Assembly (NCBI RefSeq): GCF_030811595.1 | Contig: NZ_JAUSRB010000002.1 | Span: forward strand, 7,130,001-7,194,000 | DNA: 64,000 bases | Origin: Streptosporangium brasiliense | Lineage (GTDB): Bacteria; Actinomycetota; Actinomycetes; Streptosporangiales; Streptosporangiaceae | Direction of reading: 5' to 3' | Shown: positions 13,275-19,904 of the stretch, piece after piece | Numbering within the stretch: the stretch's first letter is position 1 | Layout: each line of letters opens with the position of its first letter | The notes under the pieces: generated by a model | Database searches by the model: none | What the model was told of the DNA's origin: nothing | The model's input: only the letters and a program-made list of their open reading frames with translations | Position numbers and translations under genes: made by a program

Positions 13275-14121
13275 TTAGGGCGGTCGCCGTCGGCAGGTGG
13301 GGCATCGGCCTGTCCAGGTGGCCAGCAGCGCCTGCAGTCCTTTGAGGACCCGGTAGAGCGTCAGGCCGCCCCAACCGCTTTTGGGCTGCTCAGGCGTAGC
13401 TCGGTGCAGAACAGGTGCGCGGCGGTCACCAAGGTGACGTGCCGGTGCCAGCCGGTCCAGGAACGGCCCTCGAAATGGTCCAGCCCCAGGCCGCACTTCA
13501 GCTCGCGGTAATCATGCTCGATCCGCCAGCGAATCTTGGCCAGGGCGACCAGGTCGGCCGGTGCAGTGTCGGCGGGCAGGTTGGACAGCCAGTACGTGAC
13601 CGGCGCGGACTCGCCGTCGGGCCATTGCGCGATCATCTGGCTGATCGGCAGCGAACCGTCATCGGCCGGGCGGGGTCTGCGGCCGGCTACGCGGACCGGC
13701 ACGATCACGAACTGCGAGGTCAAGCTGCCCCTGAAGCCGGCCCGCCAGGTCAGCCTCACCGCGGCGGCACGGCCGGCGGCCAGCACGTGCTCACGCAGGC
13801 CGACCGGCTTGGTGCGATAACGCGGTCGGGGATGCGGCCCCAGCCCCGAGTAAGTGATCGTCTCGGGCTGGGCGCGCACGTCATGGGCGGTGACCACGCC
13901 TTTGACCTGCAGCACATAGGCCAGGCCACGCATCTCCAGGGCGGTGCGCAGATGCGCGTTGTCGCCGTAGGCGGCATCGGCCACCACCACCGGCGGCGCC
14001 AGGCCCCACCCCGCGAGCTCGTCGAGCATCTCCACGGCCATCTGCCATTCGGGGCGATGCCGCTCACTGTCGGGGATGGCGCAGCCGGCGCGGCGCGCGC
14101 CGATCTGCTCAGCGGTGGACG
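13275..14121 (-). pseudogene. IS701-family transposase, N-terminus missing, frame break near the C-terminus
   Basis: Readable homology begins about 14118 (EQIGARRAGCAIPD) and includes VVADAAYGDNAHLRTAL with the second catalytic Asp, YVLQVKG, and RWRIEHDYRELKCGLGLDHF with the catalytic Glu, all IS701/DDE_5 features. The first catalytic Asp region is absent: the element is cut where an acetyltransferase relic begins (14122). In the main frame the protein ends early (stop at 13361), while the -1 frame continues LTLYRVLKGLQALLATWTG, RCPTCRRRPP to a TAA at 13275, which is the normal family ending. The shift point is a canonical slippery heptamer (see 13337-13385). With half its gene gone, it cannot transpose by itself. 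Confidence 0.85.
13337..13385 (-). other. candidate -1 ribosomal frameshift signal
   Basis: On the minus strand C-CCA-AAA (plus-strand bases 13379-13385) is in the X-XXY-YYZ phase of the transposase frame. About 30 bases later GTCCT-CAA-AGGAC (13349-13337) forms a perfect 5-bp hairpin. Slipping back one base joins the two transposase frames exactly. A simple indel is the competing explanation. Confidence 0.45.
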
Positions 14122-14588
14122 GACCTCCCGACACCGTACGAACGCCAACACGCGGCCTTCTACCTGGGCCAGATAGTGCCGCGTGGCCGGCGTGATGGCA
14201 CGATGTACCACTTCGTGGAGACCCGGAACGACGGAGATCTGGTCGCATCGGTCAATGTGCACCGTCACCACGACATGTGGGCGATCGGGTACTGGACTGT
14301 GGCAGAGCGAAGGGGCCGCGGCTACGCGGCGGAGGCGGTCCGCGCCTTGGCCACCTGGTCCTTCACCGAATTGGGGGGCAGCGCCTGGAGTGGCGAGCGG
14401 AAGCAGGGAATACGGCCTCCTGGGCGGTGGCAATGAAGGTCGGCTCTGTCATGGAGAGGGTCCTGCGTGCGGCGCAGACCAGCGACAACTCGCTGAGGGA
14501 CACCTGGATCGGCGCTCTCCTGCCCTCCGACCTCGGTCTGCCCTTCGCTGTCCCCTACCACGCCGCGCAGGTAAACGCTCCGGCTTGA
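14122..14588 (+). pseudogene. GNAT acetyltransferase relic
   Basis: Reads as a GNAT N-acetyltransferase: LPTPYERQHAAFYLGQIVPR, GYWTVAERRGRGYAAEAVR (motif A, acetyl-CoA binding R/Q-x-x-G-x-G/A) and, in the next frame, RLEWRAEAGNTASWAVAMKV, GSVMERVLRAA, DTWIGALLPSDLG. The beginning is missing where the truncated IS701 element abuts, and the frame changes within TTGGGGGGCAG at about 14371-14379. Such enzymes acetylate small molecules or ribosomal protein termini. The relic shows that the transposon landed in, or recombined into, this gene. Confidence 0.85.
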
Positions 14589-14905: not shown

Positions 14906-15025
14906 AGGCTGGCGGCGGCCCCGGCAGCAAGGAGCAAGAGAGTGAGGTCCTGCTGCGAGCCGCCTGCCTGCAGTTCCCAAGGCGGCCCGCACCCCGCGGG
15001 TCGCGGCAGAACCGCGGATCGACGC

Positions 15026-17818
15026 TCATACGGCCGACGACCGGCGCTGAACGCGGTCGGCGTCCTCAGCACGGTTCTGGGCCTGGTAGAGCCGTAGCGC
15101 CTGACGCCACGCGCTACGGGCCTGTTGCCGGTCACCGACCGTGGCGTGGACGTCTCCGAGGTGTTCCAGGGTGTTGGCTTCGTCGAAGGCGTTGCCGATC
15201 TCCTGGAGCAACCTGAGAGCTTCGTTGTAGTAGCTCAGGGCCCGGCCGTACTGACCTGTGTGGTGGGCGATGTATCCCAGACTGTCGAGCGTGTTGGCTT
15301 CTCCGTCGCGGTGCTGATGACGACGGAACAGAGCCAGGGCGGCTTCGCAGTGGGCGAGACCTTCGGTGTGCAGTCCGAGCCTGCTCGCGTACCAGCCCAT
15401 GTCGTTGAGCGCGTCGGCTGTCCGCACATGGTCGTCGAGGGCCCGGAAGCGGTGTAGAGCCTGAGAGGTGTGCTCCAGAGCCTGCCGCAGATCCTCCCGC
15501 TGCGCCCAGGACATCGCCATGCCTTGATGGATCTGGGCCTGGGCTGCGAGGTCCCCGGTGCGCTGGGCAAGGGGCAGCGCTTGCTGGAAGTGATCCATGG
15601 CCAGGCCATGCCGGCCCAGCCGGGCGCAGGCGTGGCCGAGGATCCGGTGAGCCAGCACCTGGGCCTCGAGATCGCCGAGATGGCGAGCGGCTTCCAGTCC
15701 CGCCAGCCAGTCGTCGAACTGGTCCTGTATGGTTCCGCGCCGGAAGTGGAAGGTGTCCAGGCTCCAGGCAAGCTGCCACACCGCTTCGTGCCAGTTCTGC
15801 TCCGCGGCGAGGTGTCGGACGGCCAGCAGACAGGCGTGTTCGTCGGTGAACCACGTCCAGGCGGCGGTGTGGTCGGCCGGCGGCCCCTGCCACCATCCAG
15901 GAGCGGGGGCGCCGAGCTTGATCGGTGCGCGATGCGGCGCGAGAAGCCGCTCGGCGGCGTAGGCGGTGTGCAGGTGGAAATCGACCAACCGCCGAAGCGC
16001 GGCCTGCCGAGCGGTCTCGGACTGATCCTCGCGGGCTTGTTCGGCGGCGTAGCGGCGGACCAGGTCGTGCATGCGCCACCGGCACGGAGTGTGCTGATGG
16101 ATCAGGGACATCCCTTCCAGCTCTCGCAGCGGTCCGCGTACTCGGGCGGGAGGCAGGCCGGTCAGGGCGGCGATGGCGCCGAGGCCGATGTCCGGGCCCG
16201 GCGCCAGGCCCAGCAGTCCGAATACCTCGGAGGCCCGCGCCGAAAGGCCGAGGTAGGAGGTGGTGAACACGGCGCGCAGGTTCGTCCGCAGGTCCCCGGT
16301 GTCCCACACCTCCAGCCGGCCGGTGACGTCCTGTAGTTCGACGGCGAGTGCGGCCAGCGGCAACTGCGGGCTGAGCACGGCACGGGCCGCGAGGACGGCC
16401 AGAGCCAGCGGTAGACCCGCACAACAGGCCAGCAGGTAGGCCACGGCTTCCGGTTCCGCCGCCAACCGCTCGGCGCCGAGTTGGTGGAGGAGCAACTGGT
16501 GGGCCTCGGCGTCGTCGAGTGCGTCCAGAGCCACCGGCCGGGTGCCGTTGGCCGCGGTCATGCCGGCCAGCTGATGGCGACTGGTCACCACGACCGTACA
16601 GGTGGGGCTGCCGGGTAACAGGAGGGCGGCCTGGTCGGCGTCGCGGACGTTGTCCAGCACGATCAGCATCCGCCGCCCGGCCACCAGACTGCGGTAAAGG
16701 CCCACCTGCGCGTCCAGGTCTGTCGGCATCCCCATGGGACCGACGCCGAGTGCCTCCAGGAAGCCGCGCACAGCGGTGGCCGGGGACAGCGGCTGCTCGA
16801 TCGGATCGAAGCCCCGCAGATTGGCGAACAACTGTCCGTCAGGGAAGCGGTCGATGTTCTCGTGCGCCCAGCGCAGGGCCAGCCACGTCTTCCCGATGCC
16901 CCCGATCCCGCCGATGGCGGAGATCACCACCGTGCCCCCTGGCCGACCGGATCCGTCCAATGCTCTGCTGAGCTGCCCGAGTTCGGCTCTTCGGCCGGTG
17001 AACCGGGCCGGCGGGGCCGGCAACTGACGCGGCACGATGCCAGGCGCCCCGGACAGTGTGGCCGGTGTGAAGGCAGGCGGTGTCGTCGTGGGGTCGGCGG
17101 TCAGGATGCGGCGGTGCAAGTCCTGCAGTGGCGGGCCGGGGTCGGCGCCGAGTTCCTCGACCAGGTGCAGCCGGATTCGCTGGTAGTGCTGCAGGGCCTC
17201 GGCCGGCCGGCCGCTGCGGTACAGGGCGAGCATGAGCTGACCGGCCAGTCGCTCATCCAGCGGATGGCGTGCCGCCCGTACCGTCAACGCGGGCACCAAT
17301 TCGGCATGCCGCCCCGAACGGAGGTGGGCGTCGGTGAGGTCGAGTTCGGCGGCATGCCGCTGTTGGACCAGCCCTTCGCGCAGCGTGTTCAGCCAAGGGG
17401 TGTCCAGGTTGGCGAGGGCGTCCCCGCGCCACAGGGTGAGCGCCTGCTCCAGCAGATGTCGGGCGTGGGCGTCGTCGGCGCCTTGGGCTTCTCCGACCCA
17501 GCGCTGGAACCTGTGCATATCGACCGTCATGGGATCGACGCTGATCGCATAACCACCGCTCTGCCGTGCGATCCGCGCGCCGTCGACCGCCGCCAGCATC
17601 CGCCGCAGGCGGGACAGGTAGCTGTAGAGCGTGTCGCGACCATGCCGAGGCGGGTGATGGCCCCACACCCGCTCCAGGAGCTGATCGATCGACACGCGCC
17701 TGCCGGCCTCGACCAGCAGTACCGCCAGTACGCACCGCTGGCGGTGATGCCCGAGTTCCACGCGCCGGCCGTCCACGTGAACCTCCAGGTCACCCAGGAG
17801 TCGGAACTCCACCGGCAC
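15026..17818 (-). CDS. AfsR/SARP-type regulator with NB-ARC and TPR domains
   Basis: 930 residues from GTG 17818 (GATGGGGGTG upstream). Order: winged-helix trans_reg_C domain (~1-95, EFRLLGDLEVHVDGR to YSYLSRLRRML), BTAD (~100-240), NB-ARC ATPase (P-loop GGIGGIGKTWLALRWA at ~318; LIVLDNVRDADQA Walker B; TSRHQ; CCAGLPLAL GxP motif), a winged helix (MHDLVRRYAAEQARED), and six or so C-terminal TPRs (~690-925; AHRILGHACARLG, ADALNDMGWYASRLG, ANTLDSLGYIAHHTG, ANTLEHLGDVHATVG). SARPs of this layout activate secondary-metabolite genes, with the TPR/NB-ARC part acting as a signal-controlled switch. A tiny secreted peptide gene is divergent 178 bases away and direct repeats overlap its own -35, suggesting autoregulation and peptide sensing (inference). 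Confidence 0.95.
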   Translation of the reverse strand: MPVEFRLLGDLEVHVDGRRVELGHHRQRCVLAVLLVEAGRRVSIDQLLERVWGHHPPRHGRDTLYSYLSRLRRMLAAVDGARIARQSGGYAISVDPMTVDMHRFQRWVGEAQGADDAHARHLLEQALTLWRGDALANLDTPWLNTLREGLVQQRHAAELDLTDAHLRSGRHAELVPALTVRAARHPLDERLAGQLMLALYRSGRPAEALQHYQRIRLHLVEELGADPGPPLQDLHRRILTADPTTTPPAFTPATLSGAPGIVPRQLPAPPARFTGRRAELGQLSRALDGSGRPGGTVVISAIGGIGGIGKTWLALRWAHENIDRFPDGQLFANLRGFDPIEQPLSPATAVRGFLEALGVGPMGMPTDLDAQVGLYRSLVAGRRMLIVLDNVRDADQAALLLPGSPTCTVVVTSRHQLAGMTAANGTRPVALDALDDAEAHQLLLHQLGAERLAAEPEAVAYLLACCAGLPLALAVLAARAVLSPQLPLAALAVELQDVTGRLEVWDTGDLRTNLRAVFTTSYLGLSARASEVFGLLGLAPGPDIGLGAIAALTGLPPARVRGPLRELEGMSLIHQHTPCRWRMHDLVRRYAAEQAREDQSETARQAALRRLVDFHLHTAYAAERLLAPHRAPIKLGAPAPGWWQGPPADHTAAWTWFTDEHACLLAVRHLAAEQNWHEAVWQLAWSLDTFHFRRGTIQDQFDDWLAGLEAARHLGDLEAQVLAHRILGHACARLGRHGLAMDHFQQALPLAQRTGDLAAQAQIHQGMAMSWAQREDLRQALEHTSQALHRFRALDDHVRTADALNDMGWYASRLGLHTEGLAHCEAALALFRRHQHRDGEANTLDSLGYIAHHTGQYGRALSYYNEALRLLQEIGNAFDEANTLEHLGDVHATVGDRQQARSAWRQALRLYQAQNRAEDADRVQRRSSAV

Positions 17819-17845
17819 GCCACACCCCCATCTCTCGATCACCCG

Positions 17846-17899
17846 TGTGTAACGGTTCCGATCTGCGGATTCAAGGTTATTGGCAAGGATTGTCCAGGG
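17846..17899. promoter_or_regulatory. SARP-gene promoter with direct-repeat boxes
   Basis: On the minus strand TTGAAT (17874-17869) and TACACA (17851-17846) are 17 bases apart, placing the start site about 20 bases before the SARP GTG. Three related 7-mers TCAAGGT (17871), GCAAGGA (17883) and TCCAGGG (17893), about one helical turn apart, overlap and extend past the -35. This is the layout of SARP-binding direct repeats. The divergent peptide gene shares the region; TTGTCC at 17890 is a weak -35 for it. Confidence 0.5.
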
Positions 17900-17995
17900 T
17901 CGGCCGCGCATCGTCGTCTACGGACCGGGATGCGGTCGTCGTCGGATCCACTCCCCGGACCGAGGTGGCCGACTGTTGCCAACGAAGGAGATCCC

Positions 17996-18109
17996 ATGAA
18001 GCGCACATTGCTACGCCTGGCAGCCGCCGTGCTGTTCGCCGTGTCCGCCACGGCCGGTGGGGTGGTCGTCGCGTCGTCCGCGTCGGCCGATCAGGCCCAC
18101 TGCTGCTGA
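17996..18109 (+). CDS. 37-residue secreted peptide precursor, mature part ending His-Cys-Cys
   Basis: ATG 17996 is preceded at ideal distance by AAGGAG (17985-17990), one of the best ribosome-binding sites in the window, so the gene is credible despite its size. The product is MKRTLLRLAAAVLFAVSATA followed by GGVVVASSASADQAHCC: a positively charged start, hydrophobic core, and an ASA cleavage site, leaving about six or seven residues, (A)DQAHCC. Almost the whole protein is signal peptide, as in pro-signal peptides of RRNPP quorum sensing (Phr, PapR). It is divergent from a TPR-containing SARP regulator and followed by a large hairpin and an MFS exporter. A signalling role is inference; two terminal cysteines could also bind metal or form a disulfide. 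Confidence 0.7.
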   Translation: MKRTLLRLAAAVLFAVSATAGGVVVASSASADQAHCC

Positions 18110-18124
18110 TGCACACACGGTGAA

Positions 18125-18196
18125 GAGAAGTGCCTTTGAGCGGGCAGCGCAGCGGGCGCCGAAGGTCCTGCCGGCGCCCCGTCAAAGGCACTTCTC
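18125..18196. terminator. large compound hairpin after the peptide gene
   Basis: Outer arms GAGAAGTGCCTTTGA (18125-18139) and TCAAAGGCACTTCTC (18182-18196) are a perfect 15-bp inverted repeat. Inside, GGGCGCCG (18154-18161) and CGGCGCCC (18172-18179) form a second 8-bp stem. It starts 16 bases after the peptide stop. It could be a terminator, a stable 3' end, or a small mobile hairpin. Confidence 0.65.
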
Positions 18197-18302
18197 ACGG
18201 TCAGGGACGGGGGCCGGCGGCCGGCGGGAGCACAGAGGCCGCCGACTGCCATGATGGACCGTTCACGAGTACGGCTGAGCTGCGCGGATCCGAGGGGTCG
18301 AT

Positions 18303-18340: not shown

Positions 18341-19639
18341 TTACGCTCCGGATGCGACCGTCGCTCCGTCCGCGTCGGCCTGGGCGGGCTCGACCGGCTC
18401 CGCTTGTCTGTCTTCCCCGGGGCCGTCTTGGATCTGCCACACCGATGGAACGAACAGGGCGGTTACGGTGATGAGAGTGGCCAGGACTGCGCCGGCCGCC
18501 AGGACGGTGCCACTGCCGAACACCTGCGCCGCTGGTCCGGCGAGGCCCATGCCCAGGGGTGCCGCCGCGAGCGAGCCCAGCGTGACGACGGAACTGGCCC
18601 TGGCGATGAGGTGCTCGGGGACGTGGCGCTGGACGGTGGAGGTCTGCAGAACATTGTAGATCACCAACTCCAAGCCGGCCAGGAAAGCGGCCGCCATCAG
18701 TAGCCAGAGGGTGGCGGGTACAGCCAGGAGGGCCGGCAGTGGCGTTATCAGCAGAAACACGGCCAAAGTCGCACCCACGGGACGGGAAGGCTTCCAGCGA
18801 GCAGCGACGAAGCCGCCGCTGAGCCCTCCAAGGGCGTACGCGATGCCGATGGCGGACCAGGCCGGCGCCCCACCGAGATGCTCGTCTGCCACATACGGGC
18901 CGAGTACCAGGAACGGCGCGACCACGATCAGGTTGGTCAACGCCACATGGATGACCGACGTCAACAGCCATGATCGCCTGGTGACTTCCGCCAGACCTCC
19001 CTTGATGCCGGCCAGCAGCCCTGTGCTCGCTGCCGGTCGCTGCACGGCCAGCGCGCGAGGAAGGCGAGAGAGAAAGACCGCACTCACCAGGAATGTGGCC
19101 GCATCGATCAGAATCGCCCACCCAGGGCCTATGGTTGCCACCAGCGCTCCGGCCACGCTGAGCGCCAGCATCGAGGTGATGCTGCGCGACATCGACAACA
19201 ACGAGTTGGCTTCCTGCACCCGCTCCTTGCCTACGAGCGAGACCACCAGACCGACAGAGGCGGGGTTGAAGAGAGCGGATCCCATGCCCGCGATGAGTTG
19301 CAGGACCACGATCATCCAGATGCGGGCCGTCCCGCTGAGAAGAAGTGCCGCGGTGGCTCCCTGCGCGAGGAAGCGCATCAGGTCGGCGACCAGCATGACG
19401 TTGCGCCGGGAGAAGCGGTCGCCGAGGGCGCCGCCGAGGAGGCTCAGCGCGATAATGGGGATCCGGGTGCTCAGGACGACAATGCCGAGGTCGGCGGGTG
19501 ATCCGGTGAGGTGCAGGACAGCGAACGCGATCGCCAAGGGAGTCAGTGCGTCCCCGAACGTCGAGGCGGTATGTCCGAAGTAGTAGCGGCGGAAGTCCCT
19601 GACGGTCAGGGGGGCGATCGCCTCTCGGATCGCTCTCAC
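18341..19639 (-). CDS. MFS exporter (MFS_3/EntS-like)
   Basis: 432 residues from GTG 19639; an extension to 19729 is open but polar and lacks a convincing start. Twelve hydrophobic spans are recognisable. The N-terminus DFRRYYFGHTASTFGDALTP and the loop GGALGDRFSRRNVMLVADLM (cytoplasmic loop 2-3, GxLxDRxxRR) are typical of the MFS_3 group exporting siderophores, antibiotics or macrolides. It faces the peptide gene tail-to-tail across the compound hairpin. A perfect CCGCTG-TTCA-CAGCGG palindrome (19649-19664) sits just before the start and could be an operator. Export of a metabolite controlled by the neighbouring SARP gene is plausible but unproven. Confidence 0.85.
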   Translation of the reverse strand: MRAIREAIAPLTVRDFRRYYFGHTASTFGDALTPLAIAFAVLHLTGSPADLGIVVLSTRIPIIALSLLGGALGDRFSRRNVMLVADLMRFLAQGATAALLLSGTARIWMIVVLQLIAGMGSALFNPASVGLVVSLVGKERVQEANSLLSMSRSITSMLALSVAGALVATIGPGWAILIDAATFLVSAVFLSRLPRALAVQRPAASTGLLAGIKGGLAEVTRRSWLLTSVIHVALTNLIVVAPFLVLGPYVADEHLGGAPAWSAIGIAYALGGLSGGFVAARWKPSRPVGATLAVFLLITPLPALLAVPATLWLLMAAAFLAGLELVIYNVLQTSTVQRHVPEHLIARASSVVTLGSLAAAPLGMGLAGPAAQVFGSGTVLAAGAVLATLITVTALFVPSVWQIQDGPGEDRQAEPVEPAQADADGATVASGA

Positions 19640-19904
19640 AGGCCACCACCGCTGTTCACAGCGGTGAGCGGGATGAACTGCGGGGGGCCGGAGGCGATAT
19701 CGGCCCATCGGAGCCTCAGGCATGGGCAACTTGAATGCAATGGGCCAAGGTCACGCAAGGGGGCACCTCTCTGGACGGAATGCACTGATCCGAGCTCACG
19801 TCTGACGCCGGGGAGCTGCAGGCGCTCGGCGGTGATCGACTTTTGTGGTCAGGTCACCCTGGCAGAGTCGACTGACATTTCCGCAAGGGGTTCGCGGCCC
19901 ACCT

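What the first reader, a model, noticed from the sequence alone, without database searches (positions are those of the whole stretch)
15026..18109. Possible peptide-sensing circuit: SARP-NB-ARC-TPR regulator divergent from a 37-residue secreted peptide ending HCC
The peptide gene has an excellent ribosome-binding site and is nearly all signal peptide, leaving about six or seven residues (DQAHCC). It shares a promoter region with a regulator carrying C-terminal TPRs. In Gram-positive RRNPP systems, TPR regulators bind short exported and reimported peptides. SARP proteins have no established peptide ligand that I can name with certainty, so a peptide-gated SARP would be new. The terminal Cys-Cys could also make it a metal-binding or redox signal.
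Basis: partly seen in the sequence, partly recalled or inferred. Interest (0 to 1): 0.85.

Follow-up and report, generated by a model that had tools for sequence, protein, structure and literature searches.

The report
Regulator paired with secreted CC hexapeptide
A small DNA cassette in some soil actinobacteria pairs a large antibiotic-type gene switch with a tiny secreted peptide whose middle letters change rapidly while its ends stay fixed, which makes it a good candidate for a peptide-based signalling circuit in a group of bacteria not known for them.

Summary
A 37-codon ORF (17996-18109, +) with a strong RBS encodes a Sec-type signal peptide plus DQAHCC, divergent from a large SARP (true start 17818, 930 aa). 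In 341 family genomes the peptide (11 copies) and a full-length regulator orthologue (91% DNA identity or more) occur in the same 5 genomes; one has four tandem copies, two have unlinked solo copies. Every copy ends D-x-x-x-C-C: signal, D, C and C are constrained, the middle three residues hypervariable. All 8 peptide operons, solo ones included, carry near-identical SARP-type direct repeats, the last 8 bp from CATCGT; at up to 3 mismatches this site occurs nowhere else in the 5 genomes. The 3.2-kb pair and the 0.4-kb solo unit sit in mostly unrelated contexts, so they move. SARP control of the peptide is well supported but inferred. That the hexapeptide is the TPR ligand (RRNPP-like autoinduction) is the best single reading, unshown. 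Against it: one regulator faces up to four tails, its TPRs show no extra divergence, and no other target was found. A secreted effector is the main rival. Not an RRNPP member; a new variant of a peptide-linked TPR regulator.

The parts
15026..17818 (-). Large SARP regulator, 930 aa: OmpR-type DBD, BTAD, NB-ARC (STAND) and C-terminal TPRs; GTG start at 17818
   Evidence: Pfam; profile matches AfsR cryo-EM chains 8k60/8jke nearly full length, E 1e-215 or better; start set from orthologues
17819..17995 (.). Divergent intergenic region shared by regulator and peptide genes
17871..17900 (+). SARP-type direct repeats TCAAGGT (17871), GCAAGGA (17883), CCAGGGT (17894-17900)
   Evidence: Ahead of all 8 peptide operons incl. 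3 solo ones; only these in 5 genomes at <=3 mismatches, reversed control 0
17909..17914 (+). Putative -10 CATCGT, 8 bp after the last repeat
   Evidence: CATCGT in 8 of 8 operons at the same distance; spacing rule from PMC10936776 passage; not found by the sigma-70 consensus scan
17985..17990 (+). Ribosome-binding site AAGGAG
17996..18109 (+). Secreted micropeptide gene, 37 aa; signal part codons 1-31 (17996-18088), predicted mature DQAHCC (18089-18106)
   Evidence: cleavage after ASA read by eye, no SignalP available
18125..18196 (+). Long hairpin after the peptide gene, terminator-like but without a T run
   Evidence: z-score -3.7; 4 of 32 pairs with changes on both sides in 7 loci, covariation term small; other sequence at L061
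14984..18258 (.). Widest extent of the shared regulator+peptide cassette (core about 15004-18229; similarity to L061 ends at 18126); solo cassette equals about 17846-18229
   Evidence: pairwise blastn of 8 loci; junction and empty-site comparisons

Best explanation
A compact mobile cassette in which a STAND-type SARP controls a secreted hexapeptide gene from a shared promoter. SHOWN by sequence: a conserved signal-peptide-like leader, an AxA|D junction, a tail D-x-x-x-C-C with hypervariable middle, and a near-identical SARP-type site ahead of every peptide operon, linked or solo. INFERRED: the SARP binds the repeats and activates the peptide gene(s); the precursor leaves by Sec and signal peptidase I frees the hexapeptide directly. 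INFERRED and weaker: the peptide is taken back up by an oligopeptide permease and binds the TPR sensor, releasing NB-ARC autoinhibition, so the circuit is a density-dependent positive loop. The fixed D and CC would be the recognised frame, while the middle residues tune affinity or strain identity.
For: Peptide and full-length regulator orthologue in the same 5 of 341 genomes (for the linked copies this follows partly from linkage). Three solo copies all lie in regulator-bearing genomes and keep the repeats; in L062 homology starts about 5 bp before the repeats. Repeats with the last one 8 bp from CATCGT in 8 of 8 operons fit the SARP rule in PMC10936776 (passages), which gives CACTGT as the afsS -10 and says it is open whether an inducer binds the AfsR TPR sensor. 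Middle residues differ at 61% of codon positions 1-2 versus 9.6% in the signal and 0% in D,C,C. A tail of 6 residues, adjacency and mobility resemble RRNPP systems (passages of PMC10075063, PMC11343458).
Against: One regulator coexists with 4, 3 or 2 different tails in one genome. TPR dN/dS 0.34 is like the other parts, 0.29-0.60. No further promoter with the full site, so no downstream regulon is visible. Regulators at 52-54% aa identity with the same architecture lack a comparable peptide in the stretches scanned, so the TPRs did not evolve for it. The repeats were recognised after the conservation was seen, are imperfect, and are 12 and 11 bp apart, not 11 and 11. In Phr3T variants the centre is conserved and the ends vary, the reverse of here. 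No structure, binding or expression data.
Confidence: 0.45

Rival explanations
1. Secreted effector: the SARP senses something else and its output is the D-x-x-x-C-C peptide itself, acting outside the cell (metal or thiol binding, disulfide-linked dimer, or inhibitor of competitors). Tandem copies and middle-residue diversification would widen targets.
For: The only promoters found with the full site are peptide promoters; several variants per genome under one regulator; CC invariant in 11 of 11; TPRs show no extra divergence; SARPs usually activate product genes (review passages).
Against: Six unmodified residues are very small for an antimicrobial (general knowledge); no modification, immunity or uptake gene is shared in the flanks compared; H is not conserved, which weakens a specific metal site.
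Confidence: 0.33
2. RiPP-type precursor: the CC tail is modified by enzymes encoded elsewhere and the SARP controls it.
For: NB-ARC-TPR part has sub-threshold similarity to TPR proteins of RiPP systems (HaaT 285 of cutoff 1125 bits; FxSxx_TPR 61 of 300); fixed C-terminal motif with variable residues before it.
Against: Sec-type leader; no maturation gene shared beside the 8 loci in the stretches compared; scores far below cutoffs.
Confidence: 0.1
3. Cis-acting leader ORF: tandem Cys codons followed by a hairpin attenuate a downstream gene (cysteine-responsive attenuator; recalled from mycobacterial work, one search gave a listing only).
For: CC at the C-terminus of 11 of 11 ORFs; a strong hairpin 15 nt later in the window; in 3 of 8 loci (L058, L059, L064) the first ORF called downstream is on the same strand.
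Against: No common downstream gene; the first ORF called downstream is on the opposite strand in 4 of 8 loci (L060-L063), and in the window, where that filter listed none, the next gene is an opposite-strand MFS (18341-19729); secretion-signal residues are conserved; four tandem copies.
Confidence: 0.04
4. Chance ORF in a conserved promoter.
For: Flanking non-coding DNA is also well conserved; other frames are also often open over so short a stretch.
Against: 11 intact copies, in-frame indels only, codon-position bias, own RBS in each tandem copy.
Confidence: 0.02

Closest known systems
AfsR (large SARP, Streptomyces coelicolor)
   Same: Same domain order; nearly full-length profile match to 8k60/8jke; site of direct repeats close to the -10
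   Different: Far below the NCBIfam AfsR equivalog cutoff (537 of 1430 bits); no divergent secreted peptide is reported in the passages read
RRNPP quorum-sensing pairs (Rap-Phr, PlcR-PapR, AimR-AimP)
   Same: TPR regulator adjacent (177 bp; reference range up to 191 bp) to a short Sec-type precursor with a C-terminal 6-residue tail; duplication and mobility
   Different: 930 aa versus 250-500 aa receptors; SARP/NB-ARC protein; actinobacteria, not Bacillota; middle rather than ends variable; binding unshown
NosP (SARP of nosiheptide cluster)
   Same: SARP reported to respond to ligands derived from a peptide precursor (review passages and reference title only)
   Different: Ligand is a thiopeptide and an intermediate within a biosynthetic cluster; no secreted signal peptide or TPR role described in what I read
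FxSxx-COOH / HaaA RiPP systems
   Same: TPR proteins of systems with short peptides (NCBIfam names; the peptide details are recalled)
   Different: Scores far below cutoffs; no maturation enzyme seen here

Membership tests
Large SARP (SARP-NB-ARC-TPR) | OmpR-type DBD + BTAD + NB-ARC + TPR in one chain | tested here: met
   Pfam Trans_reg_C, BTAD, NB-ARC, TPR_12 above cutoffs; AfsR nearly full length
Large SARP (SARP-NB-ARC-TPR) | Direct repeats about 11 bp apart, 3' repeat 8 bp from -10 at a target promoter | tested here: inconclusive
   Repeats 12 and 11 bp apart, then 8 bp to CATCGT, in 8 of 8 operons; repeats imperfect, binding untested
AfsR orthologue | NF053617 equivalog cutoff | tested here: not met
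   536.6 of 1430 bits
RRNPP | Short precursor (10-100 aa) | tested here: met
   37-40 aa in 11 copies
RRNPP | Sec-dependent signal | tested here: inconclusive
   KR-rich start, hydrophobic core, ASA|D by eye and a home-made filter; no SignalP
RRNPP | Receptor 250-500 aa | tested here: not met
   930 aa
RRNPP | TPR-containing receptor | tested here: met
   TPR_12, TPR_1, TPR_2
RRNPP | Receptor and precursor genes adjacent | tested here: met
   177 bp in the window; linked in 5 of 5 regulator genomes
RRNPP | Overall homology to a known RRNPP receptor | tested here: not met
   Best matches in solved structures are AfsR; RapJ matches about 100 TPR columns only, E 3e-8 (best 60 of 89 shown)
RRNPP | Mature peptide binds the TPRs | not testable with these tools
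   Structure prediction switched off; no docking or assay
RiPP system | Maturation enzyme encoded with the precursor | tested here: not met
   No maturation gene shared in the flanks of 8 loci

The most novel reading that the evidence does not exclude
A mobile, self-amplifying peptide-signalling cassette of actinobacteria in which a STAND/SARP activator, not an RRNPP protein, is gated by re-imported D-x-x-x-C-C hexapeptides. One receptor would read a family of variants through the fixed D and Cys-Cys ends (possibly redox- or metal-dependent), with unlinked solo copies as extra or decoy signals on the same promoter. This would give a first ligand for the TPR sensor of a large SARP.
Probability: 0.33. 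Interest if true: 0.9.

Novelty: new variant of a known kind. Interest (0 to 1): 0.72.

Why it matters
What activates large SARPs is open: the AfsR structure paper says it remains elusive whether an inducer binds its TPR sensor (passage). Here is a natural pair of regulator and candidate ligand, with a defined promoter, natural variants and empty-site relatives, so the question can be tested with six-residue synthetic peptides. If true, it would extend peptide quorum sensing to actinobacteria, whose known signals are typically enzyme-made small molecules according to the passage read in PMC10075063, and offer a peptide-inducible SARP switch.

Tried and rejected
Attenuator reading of the CC codons plus hairpin: considered and set aside because no downstream gene is shared and 4 of 8 loci have an opposite-strand ORF next (3 of 8 have a same-strand one). 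Metal-site reading based on HCC: weakened, as H is absent in 5 of 11 tails. A general rule that SARPs carry divergent secreted micropeptides: not found. A home-made scan of 37 loci (20 own-genome matches to the regulator, of which L010 and L019 are one gene and some match only the NB-ARC-TPR part; 15 next-best loci L070-L084; L025 and L026) gave the known peptide and one other candidate that I judge plausible (L003). The other flagged ORFs I judge spurious, by eye. Flanks were 1.5 kb (3 kb for L025/L026) and for partial matches may not reach the gene start. Peptide elsewhere: none in 394 genomes drawn from the class at E<=1e-5 besides two already known, no strong match added by the order (two hits of 26-31 bits within longer frames), no relative confirmed in viral contigs. 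In plasmids one 66-bp, 80%-identical stretch inside a TraG-like gene, which I take as chance.

Extra divergence of the TPR part was looked for and not found. Clean empty sites were found for solo L062 only; for L058 and L064 the flanks are rearranged. No sigma-70 consensus promoter and no T-tailed terminator were found by the scan. Ten literature searches listed no report of this pair; the library holds open-licence papers only and the listings are capped.

Counts: L021-L024 and L059/L061/L063/L064 are the same four loci fetched twice (equal contig lengths) and are counted once. In codon comparisons I left out 3 codons of one copy and 1 codon of another to align them.

Full report
What is there. 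The window ORF 17996-18109 (+) encodes MKRTLLRLAAAVLFAVSATAGGVVVASSASADQAHCC behind AAGGAG. Divergent from it lies a large SARP with OmpR-type DBD, BTAD, NB-ARC and TPRs. Its profile matches solved AfsR over nearly the full length, but it is not an AfsR orthologue by the NCBIfam cutoff. Comparison of orthologues places its start at 17818: GTG in 4 of 5, ATG in M. malaysiensis. The first-ATG reading upstream is shifted by one base in S. pseudovulgare. The protein is 930 aa and the spacer 177 bp.

Conservation. Four orthologous loci in named genomes (Microtetraspora glauca, M. niveoalba, M. malaysiensis, Streptosporangium pseudovulgare) all carry the peptide, and S. pseudovulgare has four in tandem. 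A profile search of 341 family genomes gives 11 strong matches (65-86 bits) in 5 genomes, with the next at 31 bits. At the lax limit used, 308 of 341 genomes had some match, mostly partial matches within longer frames. A DNA search with the regulator finds a full-length copy in the same 5 genomes (the window's own and four at 91-95%), besides 79 genomes with more distant matches at 64-72% (84 of 341 at E<=1e-40). Three peptide copies are solo, with no regulator in the 15-17 kb fetched around them: one in M. glauca (G081) and two in M. malaysiensis (G084), both regulator-bearing genomes. Genome names for G handles rest on equal contig lengths. Order and class samples add no strong match (345 and 394 genomes).

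The mature tail. All 11 copies end D-x-x-x-C-C, with x-x-x = QAH, MAH, AQH, VPL, LPA, TPA, MAH, DQH, TIY, DQD, QAH; in the LPA copy an extra R precedes D. Across all pairs, codon positions 1-2 differ at 61% in x-x-x, 9.6% in the signal part and 0% in D,C,C, although third positions of D,C,C differ at 27%. The entropy at residues 33-35 is higher than in random triples (p about 1e-4; the copies are related, so this is descriptive). Signal-part dN/dS is 0.37.

Promoter. Solo and linked copies share the upstream block; in L062 the similarity begins about 5 bp before TTCAAGG. The block holds three direct repeats (TCAAGGT, GCAAGGA, CCAGGGT in the window; 12 and 11 bp apart) and then 8 bp to CATCGT, in 8 of 8 operons with small changes in the repeats. 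The four tandem copies of S. pseudovulgare share one such site. PMC10936776 (passages only) gives the SARP rule: repeats 11 or 22 bp apart, the last one 8 bp from the -10, with CACTGT as the afsS -10. The full pattern with up to 3 mismatches occurs 8 times in the 5 genomes, all at peptide operons, and the reversed control 0 times. A shorter pattern at up to 2 mismatches adds three scattered two-mismatch hits. One of them (G000:C2:4355593) lies about 120 bp upstream of a place matching a SARP (frame of 280 aa).

Mobility. Pairwise comparison shows a discrete block of about 3.2 kb (window about 15004-18229; to 18126 against L061) at the five linked loci and about 0.38 kb at the solo loci. The flanks compared (several kb a side) are not shared, except between L061 and L063, where flank genes lie in the other relative orientation, and for three short stretches at 66-81% (L058/L064, L060/L062, L060/L063) that I take as unrelated. 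G081 and G082, put in one genus by the tool, share only the block. For solo L062, the two neighbouring genes are close together without the cassette in all 5 other genomes searched: aligned ends 27 bp apart in G083, 51 in G082, 341 in G081, 54 in G000 and 225 in G309 (in the last two the alignment also starts later on the right), versus 474 bp with the cassette in G084. I identified no transposase or terminal repeat belonging to the block, so the mechanism of movement is unknown.

Mechanism. Shown by sequence: the pairing, the constrained and variable parts, the common site, the changed contexts. Inferred: SARP activation of the peptide genes, Sec export and release at ASA|D. The signal reading adds re-import and TPR binding. 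It is favoured by size, adjacency, autoregulated design and duplication, as in RRNPP systems, where several pheromone variants acting on one Rap receptor are documented (PMC11343458, outline, abstract and passages). There the centre of the peptide is constant and the ends vary, the reverse of here.

Results against. One regulator faces up to four tails. TPR dN/dS (0.34) is not raised over the other parts (0.29-0.60). No second target promoter appears. More distant regulators of the same architecture lack a comparable peptide in the stretches scanned. The site was recognised after its conservation was seen. These keep the effector reading nearly as likely as the signal reading.

Known or new. 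It is a large SARP by domain content. It is not an RRNPP member, because receptor length and overall homology fail, though it may work like one. NosP shows that a SARP can answer to precursor-derived ligands according to a review (passages and a cited title). Ten searches of an open-licence library listed no report of this pair (calls named under tried and rejected).

Noticed in passing
L003:865-1083 (G000:C2 about 8194317-8194535): Another SARP in the same genome has a 72-aa secreted-looking small ORF (tail TPTPTPTLPPHTDGDPWDGS) upstream on the same strand; no Pfam match and only weak PHROGs matches (best E 0.11).
   Followed up: partly
L105 (G000:C2:4355593-4355611, minus): A two-mismatch version of the repeat pattern (TTCAAGGTTTTTCGCACAG) lies about 120 bp upstream of a SARP match in a 280-aa frame, hinting that this site type is used by other SARPs of this genome.
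   Followed up: no
window 18125-18196: Very stable hairpin after the peptide gene, kept at 7 of 8 loci, without T run; at L061 it is replaced by other sequence that by eye has its own inverted repeat.
   Followed up: partly
window 13361-14248: DDE transposase-like ORF (DDE_5, DDE_Tnp_1) about 0.7 kb from the cassette's left edge; not shared with other cassette loci in the stretches compared.
   Followed up: partly
L061:14453-16999 and L063:4324-6802: These two cassettes lie near the same gene region (possibly UvrA-like; ABC_tran above cutoff, UvrA domain below) but with the cassette in opposite relative orientation and at different distance.
   Followed up: partly
L064:8057-8590: Right flank of the M. 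niveoalba cassette begins at the cassette edge and is found, at 88-91%, without the cassette in three other genomes, while the left flank differs: the cassette sits at a rearrangement breakpoint.
   Followed up: partly
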